Shown here piece after piece: positions 24,809 to 35,015 of a stretch of DNA of 64,000 bases. How positions within the stretch are numbered: position 1 is the stretch's first letter; each line of letters opens with the position of its first letter. The translations under genes were made by a program, and so were the position numbers. Source of the stretch: Synechococcus sp. UW140. GTDB taxonomy: Bacteria; Cyanobacteriota; Cyanobacteriia; PCC-6307; Cyanobiaceae. The stretch covers positions 62,001 through 126,000 of the forward strand of contig NZ_UCOB01000028.1 in assembly GCF_900474295.1 (NCBI RefSeq), written 5' to 3'. A model generated the notes under the pieces. The model searched no databases. It saw nothing but the letters and a program-made list of their open reading frames with translations, and was not told where the DNA came from.

Positions 24809-25021
24809 GAATGAACTTGAGAGGCCGAGAATCTAAAACTCGATCTTTCACTTCCAGTTAGACAAAAAATCCAAACTCGGCGACCAATCCCAGAAGCACA
24901 CTGCACTGGTAAGCACACTGCATTCACGCAACTCAGAAGGAAACTTTGAGCGAATTCCAGAAAAGAATAAACACAACCACTCAATTGACATAATTCAAAC
25001 AACCATCCATGGCTTGAAACA

Positions 25022-27187
25022 TTAGTGACTGGCCAACATGCGCTTCAGATAGCCGTGGTCTTTGAGCACATTCCAGCTACCCGCCTCAGCCTGCTTTCCC
25101 TTTTCGAGGATCACGATCTGATCGGCACCTCGAATAGTGGAGAGCCTGTGGGCAATACTGATACGGGTGATTCCAAGAGAATTGACCACCTCAGTAATGT
25201 GCTGCTGGGAGCGATTATCAAGCGCACTGGTGGCCTCATCAAGAATCAAGACTTTGGGGTTAGTGATCAGCGCTCTGGCGATAGCGATACGCTGCACCTG
25301 ACCTCCAGAGACATTGCCGCCAGAATCACTCAAGAGAGTTTCCAACTGCATCGGCATGGCCCGAATCTCATCAGCAACAGCAGCACGTTCAAGCACCTCC
25401 CATATCCGCTCCTCACTATATTGAATACCTCCAGATACCACGTCATAGATCGAACCCGCATTCAAGCGCGCGGTCTGCATCACGACCCCCAGCTGACGCC
25501 GATAGGTACGAATTGCGAGCTGAGTTATAGGGATGCCATCAACAAGAACCTCACCGCCCTGAGGCAAAGTGAAACCAAGCAACATACGAACGAGCGTTGT
25601 CTTTCCACACCCACTAGGCCCCGTAATCGCAGTATGCAGACCAGAGGGAATCTCAAACGAGAGATTATCAAATAGAAGACCAACACTACCCGGGAATTCA
25701 TAAGCAATGCGCTGAAGTCGAAACTCACCACGCAACTGATGATGCAAGGCATCCGGCTGAAACCCTTGCTCCACATCGGCATACATCACAGGCTCCGCCC
25801 TCTTCCAGAGCACAGCCGCCCTCCCTGCAGTATTAGCGAGAAGATTCACAGCATTGGTGATAGATCCATTAAAACTCACAAAAGCTGCGTTAAATGAAAT
25901 AAAATCAACAACAGTCTGATTTACATCAAGTCCCCCAGGCGAGGAAAGAATTCGACAAGCAATCACCGCAAACAAAAACAGCGACGCAATCGGGCCCACA
26001 AGAGTGCCATACTGCTCAATCGCATCTCCATAAACGTTGTTTCTCAACTGCAAAAGGGCGTAGCGGCTCACCTCACGCAGCCAGCGAAGCAAAAGAAATG
26101 GCTCAGCTCCAGCACTACGAATCTGAGGCATCCCCATCACCGACTGAAGAGAAAAATTAGTGATCTCGGCACCAGCCTCAAGCAAAGGCAATTGCAAACG
26201 AATCGACCGAAAAGTGATCAGCAGAATACAAGCCAAAGCAACAAGCGTGAACAACGAGGCCCATAGCGCAAGCTCTCTATCGTAAACAAACATCAGCACA
26301 AAATAACTAGAAGAAAACAGGGATGAGATCAATGTCGCCAGCACACCACTACCAAGCAACTGACGAAGCTGACTAATTGAATTCACCCTAGAAGCGAGAT
26401 CACCTGTTGAGTATCGGCTAATAAAACTCATCGGCAGACGCATCAGCCTGTCCCAGACAGCAGACTGGAGGCGAAGATCAGCGACGCTCTCCAGCCGCAA
26501 CATCATCAGGTTCTGAAGAAATGAAGTAGCAATCGAACCAATAACAATCAACACCACAACTACGACACCCTCGACGAGCAACTGCTGATCATTTTGAGGC
26601 AGAATCTGGCTCACCAAGGTATTGGTAAGCATGGGAATAGAGAGATTAAACAACATCACAACTCCCGAGGTGATCACCAGCGCTAAAACAGCAGCCAGGT
26701 CTGGTGAAAAGGCAAAGCCGAGCACAGACAAGGGTCCGCTCACAACCGGGGGTAAAGATGGATAAATCTCATAGGCCTCATCCATCAGAATGACTCCCTG
26801 ATCAGCAGGAAAATGCGCCTGCTGATGGGCGCTGTAAATCCAGTTCTCACCCCCCTTCCTATACAAAGCCATGGGCTGATGATGATCAGCTCCAAACACG
26901 ATCATCAAAGGAAATTCATTGTCGTTTGTGGCATCAAGATCCCAATGATTGGTGCTCAGATCACGTGGTGCTGTGATACGACGGTGGTGAATATCGTTGT
27001 AGTCCAAAAGCTGCACCAACCCACCCCCAGGCAGAGGCTCCAAGTGCTGGTCTCGACGGCCCAGCCGTGCCATGCAGAATCCCAACAAGCGCAGTTCTGG
27101 GTATTGATCCTGCTCAGATGGGGAACTGAATAGAAGCTCCTCCTCTAAAGCACGGGCGGCGATTAAAGCCTGATGCGATTCATTCAT
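25022..27187 (-). CDS. NHLM-type peptide export ABC transporter, ATPase/permease
   Basis: A 721-residue half-transporter. A non-peptidase N-terminal domain (about 1-150) precedes a six-helix membrane domain (about 155-440) and a C-terminal ABC ATPase. Walker A GPSGCGKTTLVRMLLG, the signature NVSGGQVQRIAIARAL, Walker B VLILDEATSALD and the switch His in ISIAHRLSTI are all intact. The form fits the second ABC protein of NHLM bacteriocin export systems (as TIGR03797), which lacks the C39 peptidase. It is the last gene of a four-gene operon, two bases after the peptidase-type transporter. The region is AT-richer than the flanks. The exported peptide is not in this window. Confidence 0.88.
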   Translation of the reverse strand: MNESHQALIAARALEEELLFSSPSEQDQYPELRLLGFCMARLGRRDQHLEPLPGGGLVQLLDYNDIHHRRITAPRDLSTNHWDLDATNDNEFPLMIVFGADHHQPMALYRKGGENWIYSAHQQAHFPADQGVILMDEAYEIYPSLPPVVSGPLSVLGFAFSPDLAAVLALVITSGVVMLFNLSIPMLTNTLVSQILPQNDQQLLVEGVVVVVLIVIGSIATSFLQNLMMLRLESVADLRLQSAVWDRLMRLPMSFISRYSTGDLASRVNSISQLRQLLGSGVLATLISSLFSSSYFVLMFVYDRELALWASLFTLVALACILLITFRSIRLQLPLLEAGAEITNFSLQSVMGMPQIRSAGAEPFLLLRWLREVSRYALLQLRNNVYGDAIEQYGTLVGPIASLFLFAVIACRILSSPGGLDVNQTVVDFISFNAAFVSFNGSITNAVNLLANTAGRAAVLWKRAEPVMYADVEQGFQPDALHHQLRGEFRLQRIAYEFPGSVGLLFDNLSFEIPSGLHTAITGPSGCGKTTLVRMLLGFTLPQGGEVLVDGIPITQLAIRTYRRQLGVVMQTARLNAGSIYDVVSGGIQYSEERIWEVLERAAVADEIRAMPMQLETLLSDSGGNVSGGQVQRIAIARALITNPKVLILDEATSALDNRSQQHITEVVNSLGITRISIAHRLSTIRGADQIVILEKGKQAEAGSWNVLKDHGYLKRMLASH

Positions 27188-27189
27188 AC

Positions 27190-29436
27190 CTAACCGTCAA
27201 GCGCCTCTGACTGGAACCGCTCCTGATCAACAAGAGCATGAAAAGCACCGCGTTTTGCCAGCAACTGATCAGGTGAACCATGCTCCAGCACAGCACCATT
27301 CTTCATCACAAGAACTTGATCACTGCGAAGAGCCGCATCAAGGCGATGGGCAACATTCACGACCGTAATTCCACGCATTTTGATCGCATCGAGCACCTTG
27401 GACTGAGTAACGTTATCGAGGGCACTGGTAGCCTCATCAAACAAGAGAATTGATGGTTGACGCACTAAGGCTCGGCAGATTTCAAGACGTTGCCGCTCAC
27501 CCCCACTGAGGTCACTACCATTGTCGTGAAGTCGACGCTGAAATGCTTCAGGGTGGCTATTAATTGTGTCGAGAATTTGCGAATCCTTGGCAGCATTTTC
27601 CAACTGGTTGAGAGCGTAACCAGGACGCCAGAGCGTGATGTTGTCACGAACAGTGGCATTAAAAACGAAGACCTGCTGAGGCACATAAGCAAGACTTTTC
27701 CGCATCACCCCATTGCCGTGGTCAAGCCATGGCATGCCATCAAAAAATAGCTCACCTGCCGAGGGCTGATATAAACCGGCAAGGAGACGAATCAACGTGG
27801 TCTTGCCAGATCCACTACCACCAACAATGGCCAGTTGCGTGCCAGCCGGAACCGTTAGATCCAGGTCCCGGATAAATGGCTCCGAAACGCGGTCAAAGGC
27901 AAAGGTCAAGCCACGCAGCTCGATCAAACCGCTTAGTCGCAAAGGAGAGCGATCAGACTCGGGCTGAGCCAAGGTAGACGCCGAATCAACACCTAAAGCC
28001 AAATCTGGAGAACTAATTTGGAAGCTATTGACAAGAGGATCATCTTCATTTTTATGCAGATCTTCAAGACGGCCAAGATTACCGATCAGACGCTGAAGCA
28101 CAGAATTGAGCTGAGGAAGCGACGAAATTGGAGCAGTCAGTTGTGCCTGAAGGAACTGAAATGCCACAAGAGTACCCAGAGATATTTTGCCTGCAATAAT
28201 CAAAAAACCACCGGCAGCAATAATCAGTACGTTCAGCAGGAAGGTGCTACCACTAGCCGCTATCGAAGAAAGCGTCGTCTGAATGCCAAGCATCTGATTC
28301 TGAATCACAACATTGCCAAAGCTCCCCTGCCACTGGCTCAGAAAATCAAACTCCAGGCCAGATGCCTTTAGCGTTTCAATATTATTAATTCCTTGAAGGC
28401 CTTTACCTTCTGCCTTCCCTTGCTCAATCGCAAGCTTGCGATTTGCATCATAGCGCTGCTCGGTAAGGAACCAGTTCAGAAGCAAATTAGAAAGCATGAC
28501 CACCAACACCATCAATGCAAGCCAAGCCGAAACAGCAAAAGCAATCAACAGCACTAGGAGCCCAATCCAAAGCTCAACAAGAAAGCGCAATAGACGCGAC
28601 ACAACGACTTGCGTGGTCTCCATCCCAAGGAGCATTCTTCCTGCAATTTCCCCTTGAAAGCGTGCCTGATAGAAACCATAAGTAACCTGAAAAAGCTTTC
28701 GAAAGAGATCAGCAGCAAGCCGCTTCGACAACAACAATTCCATGCGCCTTAGAATCACAAACTGGATACTTAGCAGCGCCAACCAACCAAGGACTGACAA
28801 CAACAAAAGCCAGACAATTGGAACCCCAAAATAAAGGCGTTGATTCTGGAGGAAGCTATCAATAAAAGTCGACGTTAATCCAGCGACAAGTAGAGCAATC
28901 ACAGCCTGAGCAGTGGCCACGATCAACAACTGAACCAAAGAGGCTCGGTAGGGCCAAAGCGTGCTGAACAACCCGAGCAGAGGAGAACGTTCATCACCTC
29001 CAGCGGAAAAATCAGGACCTGGCTCGAACTCCAGAACCACGCCGGTGAAGCTATCGAGAAACTCCTCCATCAAGACCCGTACTTGGCCCTCTGCCGGATC
29101 ACTCAGGAAGACGTGATGGCCTTTAAAGCCCTCAACCACAAGGAAGTGATTAAATCCCCAGAACACAACACAAGGGAACCGGCCGTTGTCTCGCAACTGC
29201 TCACCAGAACAGCGATAGGCCCTGGTCTTGAGGCCATAACGCCTAGCCGCAATCAACAGCTGCTTGGCATTGGAACCATCTCGGTTCACACCACAAGCCA
29301 AGCGAAGCTCACTGAGGTCAACCATTCGACCGAAATAGCCAAGAATGGTGGCCAGGGAAGCAGCACCACATTCAGCAGCCTCGTATTGAAGACGCGTTCG
29401 GGCTTTGACTCGATGACGCTCAAGTTTTCTCGTCAT
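27190..29436 (-). CDS. NHLM-type ABC transporter with C39 peptidase
   Basis: A 748-residue peptidase-containing ABC transporter (TIGR03796-like). The N-terminal C39 domain keeps the catalytic Cys23 (EAAECGAASLATILGYFG), His97 (FNHFLVVEG) and Asp113 (LSDPAEG), so it should cleave leader peptides after a double-glycine-type site while exporting the core. A six-span membrane domain covers about 165-440. The ATPase has Walker A IVGGSGSGKTTLIRLL, signature LSGGERQRLEICRAL and Walker B ILLFDEATSALD. Its start overlaps the adaptor gene stop by four bases. All catalytic residues are present, so a substrate with a cleavable leader should exist elsewhere in the genome. Confidence 0.93.
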   Translation of the reverse strand: MTRKLERHRVKARTRLQYEAAECGAASLATILGYFGRMVDLSELRLACGVNRDGSNAKQLLIAARRYGLKTRAYRCSGEQLRDNGRFPCVVFWGFNHFLVVEGFKGHHVFLSDPAEGQVRVLMEEFLDSFTGVVLEFEPGPDFSAGGDERSPLLGLFSTLWPYRASLVQLLIVATAQAVIALLVAGLTSTFIDSFLQNQRLYFGVPIVWLLLLSVLGWLALLSIQFVILRRMELLLSKRLAADLFRKLFQVTYGFYQARFQGEIAGRMLLGMETTQVVVSRLLRFLVELWIGLLVLLIAFAVSAWLALMVLVVMLSNLLLNWFLTEQRYDANRKLAIEQGKAEGKGLQGINNIETLKASGLEFDFLSQWQGSFGNVVIQNQMLGIQTTLSSIAASGSTFLLNVLIIAAGGFLIIAGKISLGTLVAFQFLQAQLTAPISSLPQLNSVLQRLIGNLGRLEDLHKNEDDPLVNSFQISSPDLALGVDSASTLAQPESDRSPLRLSGLIELRGLTFAFDRVSEPFIRDLDLTVPAGTQLAIVGGSGSGKTTLIRLLAGLYQPSAGELFFDGMPWLDHGNGVMRKSLAYVPQQVFVFNATVRDNITLWRPGYALNQLENAAKDSQILDTINSHPEAFQRRLHDNGSDLSGGERQRLEICRALVRQPSILLFDEATSALDNVTQSKVLDAIKMRGITVVNVAHRLDAALRSDQVLVMKNGAVLEHGSPDQLLAKRGAFHALVDQERFQSEALDG

Positions 29437-30854
29437 GATCTGCCTGCATTCGGCTGCCGAGAGGATGGTGTTCCTGGAGAGGAGCCTGGATCAGGCTGAT
29501 CAGGTGGAGCGATTCCAAAAAAGCTGCGAATTGCAGGTAGAACCAGAGCAATCGGCGCCACACGTCGGGTTGTGATTTCCACGTTGAGGCGATCTCCAGG
29601 CGAGGGAGGGAAGGGGAGTTCGGAATTCGAACTCCACTGGTAGCCCCCACTGTTGGTCACATCACTCGCCCCGGAGCGCTGAAGCGCAAGGATGGCAAGC
29701 GTGGGGGAGGGATGCCTTGAGACAATGATTTGGGCCATCGCCTTCACACCAATACGAGCAGTGACCTCATCAACACCACTGGGCAAATTGGCCATCGACA
29801 CCACACGACCTTTAATTCCGCCCACTTCCGATCGTTTGTAACCAGAGGGAGTGGCCAGTGCTTCCATCCCAGGGAAGACCTGGGCCCTCTGCTTACTACT
29901 GAGGAACACAGGCACCATCACCGGCTGGTCCAGCTGATTATCACTCAGCTCCATCAACACTTTTCCACGTACAACGCTTTCACCATCGTTAGGGATAAGA
30001 CTCGAAAGATAGACATCCTTTGGGGCATAGATCAACTGCTGACTAATCACATTGGCCAACTCACCCTTGAGCTTCTGATAGGCCTGATCTCGCCGAGACG
30101 AGATCCGAATCAATTCAGTGTCATTACTATGGATTTGAGACATAGTATTAGCCACTTGCGATTGCTGATTAAGAATAGTTTGCCGATTCACATAACCTTG
30201 AGAAGCCAACTCCTTCATGTTTTCAAGATAAGAAAAACGGCTTTCATACTCCCTCTTCAGGATGTCTTGCTTGGAGGAAATATTTGCTTCCTCCTGCTCA
30301 GAATTGCTAATCACCCGCTGCAACTGATCAATCGCGCTACTCAAGCGCTCTAACTCTGCCGACGAGTGCACCCAGATCAACAAACGGCCTTTAGGAACAG
30401 CTAGACCCTTAAATTTCTGCTCTAGAATCCTGGCAAATCTACGTGATGAAGTCATACGGGCACCGTCAGCTGAAACTGACATACCAGACTGGCTAGCCTG
30501 ATAAATCTCACGTGCCAGACTGGCCACATCCTGATCGCTGAACTGATCGGGTGAATGCATGAAACGTCGAGCCTTATCATGCCAAGCCCTGTGTGGCTTG
30601 TTGAACATGTAGACAGCGGCTCCATCCGTGGCACTCAGGCTGGAATTAATCGTGCTCACAGGAAGCAACACCCCAGTTCCCTGCACACTCACAGGGATGC
30701 GCGCCAACGTGGCCCACAGACTGCCTGAAATCGCAATCAAAGCGCCGAGCGCCAGGGTTGCACGCAATGGAGGGGTCAATAGTGTGACGGGCCCATCACG
30801 GTCACCGACGTGATGTCGCTTCTGAAGAGCTCGTTGACTGAAGAGTTTTGTCAT
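29433..30854 (-). CDS. HlyD-like membrane fusion protein of NHLM export
   Basis: A 473-residue periplasmic adaptor. One membrane span near residues 30-52 (LRATLALGALIAISGSLWATLA) follows a short cytoplasmic segment. Then come a barrel-sandwich part (VQGTGVLLPV), a long coiled-coil stretch (about 165-290) and a C-terminal beta part. This fits the HlyD family adaptor of NHLM systems (TIGR03794-like), which joins inner-membrane ABC transporters to TolC. It overlaps the tolC-like gene upstream and the transporter downstream by four bases each, so the subunits are translationally coupled. The C-terminus is Pro/Ser-rich. Confidence 0.9.
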   Translation of the reverse strand: MTKLFSQRALQKRHHVGDRDGPVTLLTPPLRATLALGALIAISGSLWATLARIPVSVQGTGVLLPVSTINSSLSATDGAAVYMFNKPHRAWHDKARRFMHSPDQFSDQDVASLAREIYQASQSGMSVSADGARMTSSRRFARILEQKFKGLAVPKGRLLIWVHSSAELERLSSAIDQLQRVISNSEQEEANISSKQDILKREYESRFSYLENMKELASQGYVNRQTILNQQSQVANTMSQIHSNDTELIRISSRRDQAYQKLKGELANVISQQLIYAPKDVYLSSLIPNDGESVVRGKVLMELSDNQLDQPVMVPVFLSSKQRAQVFPGMEALATPSGYKRSEVGGIKGRVVSMANLPSGVDEVTARIGVKAMAQIIVSRHPSPTLAILALQRSGASDVTNSGGYQWSSNSELPFPPSPGDRLNVEITTRRVAPIALVLPAIRSFFGIAPPDQPDPGSSPGTPSSRQPNAGRS

Positions 30855-32533
30855 GGCGAAGGGTTCTGGCGAATCGCATCGACGCGTTGATCAAGATGCT
30901 CCTCCACTCCACTAGGCCATGTTGCTGAGTAGCGATACAGCTCAGCAATGGAATTGTTATACGCCAGCACAGACGCAGAGACCTGCTTTGCAGCAGTTGA
31001 GAGCTGGGAAATCGTTTGGACAACACTGGTGATATCACCGACTCCAACAGAGAAGCGTACCCGAGAAGCTTCTTGAGAAATTTGTGCACTTTTATAGCCC
31101 TGGCTTGCACTCGCAATGGCTACTTTTGAAGTCTGCATTTGACCGTAACTCGAACGGACTTCAGCCACGATCTGGTTTTCCGTTTTGAACTTTTGGGCCA
31201 TGTAGCCACGACTTCGAGAGAACGAAGACTGTGCGTTAGCAGCTTTAATGCCACCATCAAAAACCTGCCAAGTAAAGCCTATGCCAGCACCCGCGTTCCA
31301 GAGACGCGTCGTTTCGTAACCGAGGCCAGGATCTTTCGAGGTCGGAACAGAATATCCATTCAGCCCCTGCAAAGAGCCCGAACCAACGAACTGGAATACA
31401 GGAAGATAACTACGCAGCTCCGAAACACCGTTCCATTGGGCTGATTCTGAAGCAGCAAGATTGGCAAGGATTTCTTCGCGCTTACGCAGGGCATCACGGA
31501 TGGTGACATCCAGTGGTTTCTCCCAGCCCCCTTGAGGAGCCGCCTTCTCACTAGGAAGCGCAAGTGTGTCGGGGGGCAGAGCCATCAGATCCGCCAACTT
31601 GGCTGTTTGATCAATATAGTTACGCGTATAGGAGATCAAATCACTCAACAGCAAGAATAACTGCGAGCGAGTTTTCTCCACATCCAATACCGTCACCATA
31701 CCGATCCCTTTTTTAGCTTCGAGAACCTCCAACTGACGTCGATTAATAGCATAAATTTGCTGGAAGCTATCCATCAGCTGCTCACTACTTTGAATCGCAA
31801 AATAGGCCTTCTGAAGGTCTAGCACCAAACCTCTGGCACTCACCGAGAACAAATATTTTTGCTCGTCCAATGATGCTGAAGCAGAATTAATAACAGGCTG
31901 TCGCTTAGGATCAATGAAGCTCCAGCTAGCAGAGACAGCGGGGTAAACCTGAAACCTCTGACTTGTAAGAGCAATTTTCCTCGACGTAGATCTTGACAAT
32001 TCACCAGCCATTGGAACATCTTCATACACCTCATCATCAACAGAACGTGCATATCTATTTTTCACATATGTGTCCCATTCGTAATTCGCGAAAGGGCTAC
32101 CATTGAGCTGGAGCTTGGGATACCACTGACGTTGGGCAGCGATCAACGCCCACTCCTGATCTTGGATCGCCGTGAACGCCATCTCCAACTGTGGATTGAG
32201 CCGAACTCCTTCAGCGATGACCTGTTCAAGCGTCACCGCCACCCCATTCGCACGGATGGCCTCCTGAAGACGCTCCAACTCCTTGACAAGCTGATCAGGA
32301 CTGACCAGGACTGCCTCATGTGAACGAGCACTACCTCCAGATACGCGTTCAGGCATAACCGGGACCTGCTGTGCTGCGCCAGCACCGAAAGGAGCGATGA
32401 CGACAGCGCTCACCAGAATGGCAACAGCTCCCAGCTGCGAAGTTCGAACTGCTTTTATCAGTCGCCTGTAACTTTCCAGAAATTTAGCTTCAAAAAAATA
32501 GATTTCCAGCCCTAAACGACCAATGCGACACAC
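30851..32533 (-). CDS. TolC family outer-membrane efflux protein
   Basis: A 560-residue TolC-like protein, first in the export operon. An N-terminal hydrophobic segment (about 38-55) ending near APFGAGAAQQVP acts as a signal peptide. Paired outer-membrane-factor domains follow, with long helices containing NPQLEMAFTAIQDQEWALIAAQRQWYP-like motifs and VSARGLVLDLQKAYF; the second half repeats the pattern (AQSSFSRSRGYMAQK, VGDITSVVQTISQLS). With the adaptor and two ABC proteins it makes a complete route from cytoplasm to outside. It overlaps the HlyD-like gene by four bases. The region is AT-richer than the neighbouring genes. Confidence 0.88.
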   Translation of the reverse strand: MCRIGRLGLEIYFFEAKFLESYRRLIKAVRTSQLGAVAILVSAVVIAPFGAGAAQQVPVMPERVSGGSARSHEAVLVSPDQLVKELERLQEAIRANGVAVTLEQVIAEGVRLNPQLEMAFTAIQDQEWALIAAQRQWYPKLQLNGSPFANYEWDTYVKNRYARSVDDEVYEDVPMAGELSRSTSRKIALTSQRFQVYPAVSASWSFIDPKRQPVINSASASLDEQKYLFSVSARGLVLDLQKAYFAIQSSEQLMDSFQQIYAINRRQLEVLEAKKGIGMVTVLDVEKTRSQLFLLLSDLISYTRNYIDQTAKLADLMALPPDTLALPSEKAAPQGGWEKPLDVTIRDALRKREEILANLAASESAQWNGVSELRSYLPVFQFVGSGSLQGLNGYSVPTSKDPGLGYETTRLWNAGAGIGFTWQVFDGGIKAANAQSSFSRSRGYMAQKFKTENQIVAEVRSSYGQMQTSKVAIASASQGYKSAQISQEASRVRFSVGVGDITSVVQTISQLSTAAKQVSASVLAYNNSIAELYRYSATWPSGVEEHLDQRVDAIRQNPSP

Positions 32534-32580
32534 GCCGGTGCGCCCTCGGGTTTGGCCATCAATAGAACAAACAATTAGAC

Positions 32581-34651: not shown

Positions 34652-34812
34652 CCTTCCAGGAACGCACCAGAAAGTTCATCCTCTCAGGGCAAGGGACGAT
34701 TTCGCCCCTTCTCTTGCATCAGAGCCGTGAGAGATGCGCATTGGGATGACGAGAACAGTCAGCCGACTCAGCCGAGTCTCCCCCACAGAGGGCAGCCAAC
34801 TGTGGTGATCCG

Positions 34813-34843
34813 CAGGCCGTGATCTCAGCTGCGATCACGCCTG
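34813..34843 (-). promoter_or_regulatory. Stable hairpin upstream of the ferredoxin gene
   Basis: The sequence from 34813 to 34843 folds into an 11-bp stem with one bulged base and an eight-base loop (core CGTGATC with GATCACG). It lies about 160 bases upstream of the ferredoxin start in a 307-base gap. A smaller stem-loop (GCCC, CTCG loop, GGGC) is at 34870-34881. No T-run follows. It could be a leader structure or part of a small RNA. Confidence 0.4.
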
Positions 34844-34958
34844 AGTGTGCTGGAGACCAATCCTTGAAAGCCCCTCGGGGCAAGACCATCTCCTGCAAAA
34901 CACAAGACTCCAAATTGATGATCGAGACAGGCGCCAGTCTCCGAAACTGGAATTCGAC

Positions 34959-34988
34959 AAAAAAAGCCGGTCCCGTCAGGAACCGGCT
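34959..34988 (-). terminator. Rho-independent terminator of the ATP synthase operon
   Basis: On the minus strand AGCCGGT (34988-34982) pairs with ACCGGCT (34971-34965), with an inner GG/CC pair, followed by seven T (34965-34959). It lies 28 bases after the atpG stop codon and ends the long operon. Confidence 0.85.
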
Positions 34989-35015
34989 GAAGAAGAGGTG
35001 AGAAGCAATCAGCGA

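What the first reader, a model, noticed from the sequence alone, without database searches (positions are those of the whole stretch)
25022..32533. Orphan NHLM-type peptide export operon without a visible precursor
Four minus-strand genes encode a complete trans-envelope exporter: TolC-like, HlyD-like adaptor, a C39 peptidase ABC transporter with Cys23, His97 and Asp113 intact, and a second ABC protein. Overlaps of four bases join the first three, and two bases separate the last. NHLM systems (established knowledge) export RiPP-like peptides with nitrile-hydratase-like or Nif11-like leaders. No precursor or modification enzyme (LanM or other) lies in this window. The active protease implies that a leader-bearing substrate exists elsewhere in the genome, so the peptide product may be unknown.
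Basis: partly seen in the sequence, partly recalled or inferred. Interest (0 to 1): 0.75.

Follow-up and report, generated by a model that had tools for sequence, protein, structure and literature searches.

The report
Lanthipeptide exporter without its modifying enzyme
This marine cyanobacterium has kept the export machine of a prochlorosin (ring-shaped peptide) system but has no gene for the ring-forming enzyme; the only two matching peptides found in its genome have no cysteine and nearly the same 12-residue end, so the machine may now secrete a plain linear peptide.

Summary
The four-gene operon is real and exactly as described. It is not strictly NHLM: the three NHLM profiles are the best hits but fall below their cut-offs, as do the ABC proteins of its LanM-linked orthologs. 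It is the exporter of a prochlorosin-type class II lanthipeptide system. Of 16 Cyanobiaceae genomes with an ortholog (at least 55% identity), 14 encode LanM, 11 of them beside the exporter. One relative has the cassette at the same chromosomal site, with lanM filling the place that is a 213-bp spacer here. No LanM was found anywhere in this 99.98%-complete draft genome. The 'missing' precursors exist: two strong ProcA/Nif11 leaders ending in GG, one 314 bp outside the window edge, the other at a locus whose counterparts in two lanM+ relatives encode Cys-rich prochlorosins. Both cores lack cysteine and nearly match (RAFSWGVGNSGL, RAYGNGVGNSGL), while the leaders are only 45% identical. This inverts the prochlorosin pattern of conserved leader and variable core; no other of 492 within-genome pairs does so. 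Best reading: a lanthipeptide system that lost its synthetase and may now secrete a linear peptide. Export and function are inferred. LanM-less procA strains were noted before, so this is a variant of a known system.

The parts
30851..32533 (-). TolC-like outer membrane channel (GTG start as called; true start may be internal)
   Evidence: Pfam OEP 138.5 bits; orthologs 42-55% identical in the same place of the operon
29433..30854 (-). HlyD-like periplasmic adaptor
   Evidence: TIGR03794 85.5 bits, below its cut-off of 156.2; orthologs 40-69% identical
27190..29436 (-). C39 peptidase-permease-ATPase (LanT/PCAT type), Gln17 Cys23 His97 Asp113 intact
   Evidence: Peptidase_C39 108 bits; catalytic sites aligned in 16 proteins; full-length match to PCAT1 4ry2 and ComA 8hf7
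25022..27187 (-). Second ABC permease-ATPase without peptidase
   Evidence: TIGR03797 best hit, 534.5 bits, below its cut-off of 709.4; Walker A, signature and Walker B present
24809..25021 (.). 213-bp spacer where lanM lies in relative G190 (plus strand, 3,180 bp); no LanM remnant found
   Evidence: Synteny with L087; blastn and blastx of the spacer

Best explanation
The operon is the export half (TolC, HlyD, C39-ABC 'LanT', second ABC) of a prochlorosin-type class II lanthipeptide cassette from which lanM has been lost (inferred from synteny and phylogeny). The machine is intact at the sequence level (shown). Its most likely substrates are the two ProcA/Nif11-leader peptides found elsewhere in the genome, at C3:61450-61686 and C8:79493-79735 (inferred from leader family and co-occurrence). 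The C39 domain would cut after Gly-Gly and the complex would release RA[FY]xxGVGNSGL as a linear, unmodified 12-mer outside the cell (inferred, not shown). The two near-identical cores suggest that the peptide itself is under selection, for example as a signal or bacteriocin-like agent; that role is speculative.
For: LanM in 14 of 16 genomes with an ortholog, adjacent in 11 (Fisher 1e-17). Same site with lanM in G190. No LanM in this genome by two models and no YcaO. Tree nests this exporter among lanM-linked ones. Two strong ProcA leaders with Val-4, Leu-7, Leu-12, the residues bound by the C39 domain of LahT (PMC6363468). The C8 precursor is syntenic with Cys-rich procA genes of UW105 and G190. 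Cys-free cores 7/9 in LanM-less against 11/73 in lanM+ genomes. Core 75% and leader 45% identical, the only such pair of 492, with equal synonymous divergence in leader and core.
Against: No expression, cleavage or secretion data. The genome is a draft. The two precursors are not next to the operon and another C39 exporter (contig 24) could serve them. The time of lanM loss is unknown, so retained constraint after the loss is not shown. The shared core rests on two genes in one genome and the test was made after seeing it. Cys-free ProcA-type peptides also occur in LanM-less genomes with no C39-ABC match (G050), so Cys loss alone does not show function.
Confidence: 0.6

Rival explanations
1. 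Decaying remnant. LanM was lost, the system no longer has a function, and the exporter and the two Cys-free precursors are relics not yet disrupted.
For: Only two strong precursors are left against 6 to over 150 in lanM+ relatives. Other LanM-less genomes hold a few Cys-free ProcA-type relics, some with broken or partial leaders.
Against: All four exporter genes are intact with every catalytic motif; no consistent acceleration in relative-rate tests; the core is better conserved than the leader between the two precursors.
Confidence: 0.22
2. The operon exports something other than the two GVGNSGL peptides, for example another GG peptide of the genome, while the two peptides leave through the contig-24 NHLM exporter.
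For: Contig 24 encodes an NHLM ABC1 above cut-off with an intact ECGAAS site, and C39 domains can be substrate tolerant (PMC6363468).
Against: Contig 24 has its own precursor of another leader type beside it. In the genus, ProcA leaders with E of 1e-30 or better occur in the genomes with an ortholog of this exporter, and otherwise only in G139, which has a more distant (42%) C39 exporter.
Confidence: 0.13
3. LanM exists but lies in an assembly gap, so this is an ordinary prochlorosin system with unlinked lanM.
For: 35 contigs; lanM is unlinked to the exporter in G047, G134 and G246.
Against: 99.98% completeness; no LanM candidate at all; the usual lanM place beside the operon lies inside a continuous contig and is empty; only two strong ProcA genes remain, both without cysteine.
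Confidence: 0.05

Closest known systems
Prochlorosin/synechococsin system (ProcA/SyncA, ProcM/SyncM, C39 exporter) of marine picocyanobacteria (PMC10783134)
   Same: ProcA/Nif11 leaders ending in GG scattered over the genome; orthologous TolC-HlyD-C39 ABC-ABC operon; same chromosomal site as a lanM-bearing cassette in G190.
   Different: No LanM; only two strong precursors; cores without cysteine and nearly identical to each other, with divergent leaders.
Cyanobacterial bacteriocin clusters with HlyD and C39 ABC transporters (PMC3140520)
   Same: Same components; lanM genes distant from transport genes are already described there.
   Different: There lanM is elsewhere in the genome (MIT9313); here none was found.
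NHLM exporters (TIGR03794/03796/03797)
   Same: Same gene content and best profile hits; Nif11-type leaders.
   Different: All three proteins score below the curated cut-offs; a true NHLM ABC1 sits on contig 24 of the same genome.
AMS/PCAT peptidase-containing exporters PCAT1, LahT, ComA
   Same: C39 + permease + ATPase by full-length sequence match (4ry2, 8hf7); leader residues -4, -7, -12 fit LahT recognition (PMC6363468). ComA exports an unmodified signal peptide (general knowledge).
   Different: Type I assembly with TolC, HlyD and a second ABC half-transporter; no cognate sensor was looked for.

Membership tests
NHLM export system | ABC1 above the TIGR03796 cut-off (853.3) | tested here: not met
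   686.6 bits; lanM-linked orthologs 684-706, contig-24 protein 973.9
NHLM export system | ABC2 above TIGR03797 (709.4) and HlyD above TIGR03794 (156.2) | tested here: not met
   534.5 and 85.5 bits
Prochlorosin / class II lanthipeptide system | LanM synthetase in the genome | tested here: not met
   TIGR03897 and PF13575: no match in this genome; PF13575 found LanM in 20 of the 300 genomes searched
Prochlorosin / class II lanthipeptide system | ProcA-type Nif11 leader ending in GG | tested here: met
   Two precursors at E about 1e-30
Prochlorosin / class II lanthipeptide system | Core with Cys and Ser/Thr able to form lanthionine | tested here: not met
   No Cys in either core
Prochlorosin / class II lanthipeptide system | C39 exporter orthologous to lanM-linked ones | tested here: met
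   Orthology, tree and shared site
AMS/PCAT (C39-ABC) exporter | C39 catalytic Gln, Cys, His, Asp and ABC motifs | tested here: met
AMS/PCAT (C39-ABC) exporter | Cleaves its leader after GG and exports the core | not testable with these tools
   Needs biochemistry; leader residues -4, -7, -12 fit
Type I secretion system | ABC protein, adaptor and TolC-like channel | tested here: met
   Pfam and NCBIfam hits; the adaptor hit is weak

The most novel reading that the evidence does not exclude
A lanthipeptide system has been converted into a linear-peptide secretion system: after losing its synthetase the lineage kept the exporter and settled on one Cys-free core (GVGNSGL end) on two leaders, used as a secreted signal or effector. 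The Cys-free bias of ProcA-type peptides in LanM-less genomes would be a general consequence.
Probability: 0.3. Interest if true: 0.65.

Novelty: new variant of a known kind. Interest (0 to 1): 0.45.

Why it matters
The role of prochlorosins is unknown, and so is what their exporter handles apart from LanM products. This strain looks like a natural lanM-less genome with an intact exporter and only two strong candidate substrates. That reduces a combinatorial problem (up to more than a hundred peptides in a relative) to two short linear 12-mers that can be synthesised and sought in spent medium. It would test directly whether secretion, rather than cyclisation, is the part kept by selection. 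The Cys-free bias in LanM-less genomes is a general prediction that can be checked across picocyanobacteria.

Tried and rejected
Strict NHLM assignment: rejected on profile cut-offs. Plain multidrug or toxin type I secretion: TIGR01846, TIGR03375 and MsbA models score far lower than TIGR03796/97 and none reaches its cut-off. YcaO as another modifier: none in the genome. LanM remnant in the 213-bp spacer: none by blastn or blastx. Cassette remnant at UW105's empty ald site: none. GVGNSGL core in other genomes: none in the other 299 Cyanobiaceae or in other loci fetched. TIGR03898 search: uninformative, nothing rang in the controls. PMC5502607 (cited in PMC10783134) is not held. Promoter and terminator scan: no more sites than chance, uninformative. 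Recent gene conversion of the core: not supported, since synonymous agreement is equal in leader and core, but the numbers are small.

Full report
OBSERVATION. The four minus-strand genes are present with the stated coordinates, overlaps and catalytic residues. The host is a picocyanobacterium: the genome is 2.70 Mb in 35 contigs, 99.98% complete, and the window is contig 3, 62001-126000. Its closest held relative by the neighbouring alanine dehydrogenase (ald) is G110, 99% identical. G110's contig of 378,165 bases has the same length as the UW105 contig NZ_UCNN01000030.1, so I take G110 to be Synechococcus sp. UW105.

WHAT KIND OF EXPORTER. Against NCBIfam the best hits of the ABC and HlyD proteins are the three NHLM models, but all are below their curated cut-offs: 686.6/853.3, 534.5/709.4 and 85.5/156.2 bits. 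The C39-ABC proteins linked to lanM in UW105, G190 and G148 score the same way (684-706 bits), while another exporter in this genome (contig 24) scores 973.9 and is a true NHLM ABC1. So the operon belongs to a group beside NHLM that goes with LanM. By sequence its C39-ABC protein matches PCAT1 and ComA over its full length.

CO-OCCURRENCE WITH LANM. Of 300 Cyanobiaceae genomes, 16 hold an ortholog of the C39-ABC protein at 55% identity or more. LanM (PF13575) is in 20 of the 300, including 14 of these 16 (Fisher 1e-17). The exceptions are this genome and G175, an 86%-complete assembly. In 11 genomes lanM lies beside the exporter. The neighbour gene in L020, L022 and L025 has both LanM domains, and L021 shows its LANC_like end; UW105's scores 763 bits against TIGR03897.

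THE EMPTY LANM PLACE. In G190 the cassette sits between ald and the YchJ/SEC-C gene, the same site as here, with lanM (3,180 bp, plus strand) between ald and the second ABC gene. In the window that space is 213 bp with no detectable LanM remnant. In 17 other genus members inspected the site downstream of ald lacks the cassette; one contig (G304) ends within the site. UW105 keeps its lanM cassette elsewhere and has an empty ald site without remnant. In a maximum-likelihood tree of HlyD+ABC1+ABC2 this genome is sister to UW105 (98/96), then G190, nested among lanM-linked lineages. Loss of lanM is therefore the simplest history (inference). Ald is 99% identical to UW105 but the two ABC proteins only 79-81%, so the cassette has its own history (transfer or differential loss). 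The date of lanM loss is unknown, and it may have happened in a donor.

THE PRECURSORS. TIGR03798 finds 14 Nif11-type hits at E below 1e-3 in this genome. A profile of 12 ProcA leaders finds only two strong ones, about 1e-30, plus three generic Nif11 proteins. They are C3:61450-61686 (MASQNF...HVAGG|RAYGNGVGNSGL), which ends 314 bp outside the window, and C8:79493-79735 (MSESQL...AVTGG|RAFSWGVGNSGL). LanM+ relatives of the genus hold 6 to 150 or more such genes. At the C8 locus UW105 and G190 carry a syntenic procA with cores AVSEFCTAQDCVSVQRC and EKTNFYCSNWNHTCAWNC; the upstream region and leader align, the core does not. At the C3 locus the gene is absent from UW105 and G190.

THE CORES. In the sampled lanM+ genomes 11 of 73 cores lack Cys. 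In LanM-less genomes of the genus 7 of 9 do (G000 2/2, G050 2/2, G177 2/2, G139 1/2, G120 0/1) (Fisher 2e-4, or 0.003 without this genome). Genes within a genome are not independent, so the p-value is indicative only. Among 492 within-genome pairs only this genome's pair has core identity of 60% or more with leader identity of 60% or less (75% against 45%; medians over all pairs are 20% and 76%). Identical amino acids use identical codons at the same rate in leader (16/29) and core (5/9), so the shared core is not obviously a recent copy, and constraint on the core is the simpler reading; the numbers are small. The GVGNSGL-stop pattern occurs twice in this genome and in none of the other 299.

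MECHANISM. [quoted passage not shown] Inferred: the C39 domain cleaves after GG, and the two ABC proteins with HlyD and TolC release a linear 12-mer. Speculative: a signalling or antagonistic role. Relative-rate tests show no consistent acceleration of the exporter proteins, which argues against long decay but cannot be dated to the loss of lanM.

KNOWN AND NEW. Prochlorosins, their scattered precursors and nearby TolC/HlyD/C39-ABC genes are known, and 9 of 12 procA-bearing strains in one survey had LanM, so LanM-less strains had been counted (PMC10783134). lanM genes distant from exporter clusters are also known (PMC3140520). In the papers I could read I found no description of a lanM-less genome with an intact exporter and two Cys-free precursors sharing one core, nor of the Cys-free bias; the literature search covered open papers only.

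Noticed in passing
L082 3474-10620 (G000 contig 27): A third exporter operon (TolC, HlyD, C39-like ABC, second ABC) whose C39 domain has Ser in place of the catalytic Cys (AESGAV); probably a peptidase-dead exporter.
   Followed up: partly
L081 12-332 and 2706-9775 (G000 contig 24); also L015 and L019: A true NHLM ABC1 (973.9 bits) beside a precursor of another leader type ending in AIAGG with a Cys-containing core; similar leaders occur at L015 and L019.
   Followed up: partly
L112, L185 (G050); L113, L186 (G177); L103 (G139): Other LanM-less genomes of the genus also keep one or two ProcA-type peptides, mostly without cysteine.
   Followed up: partly
L145 3229-13610 (G139): A more distant C39 exporter followed by a ThiF/MoeB-like gene, possibly a different peptide-modification system in a LanM-less genome.
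   Followed up: no
L090 5230-6249 (G175): The second ABC gene appears truncated or frameshifted in this metagenome assembly, and no LanM was found there.
   Followed up: no
window 34652-35015: A conserved gene of about 233 aa found beside atpG in many relatives (L087 18449-19150 and others) is absent here and from UW105.
   Followed up: no
window 24809-25021 and 32534-32580: The ald to YchJ/SEC-C interval differs between genomes: empty in most, this cassette in two, a 487-aa gene in three others; it may be an insertion hotspot.
   Followed up: partly
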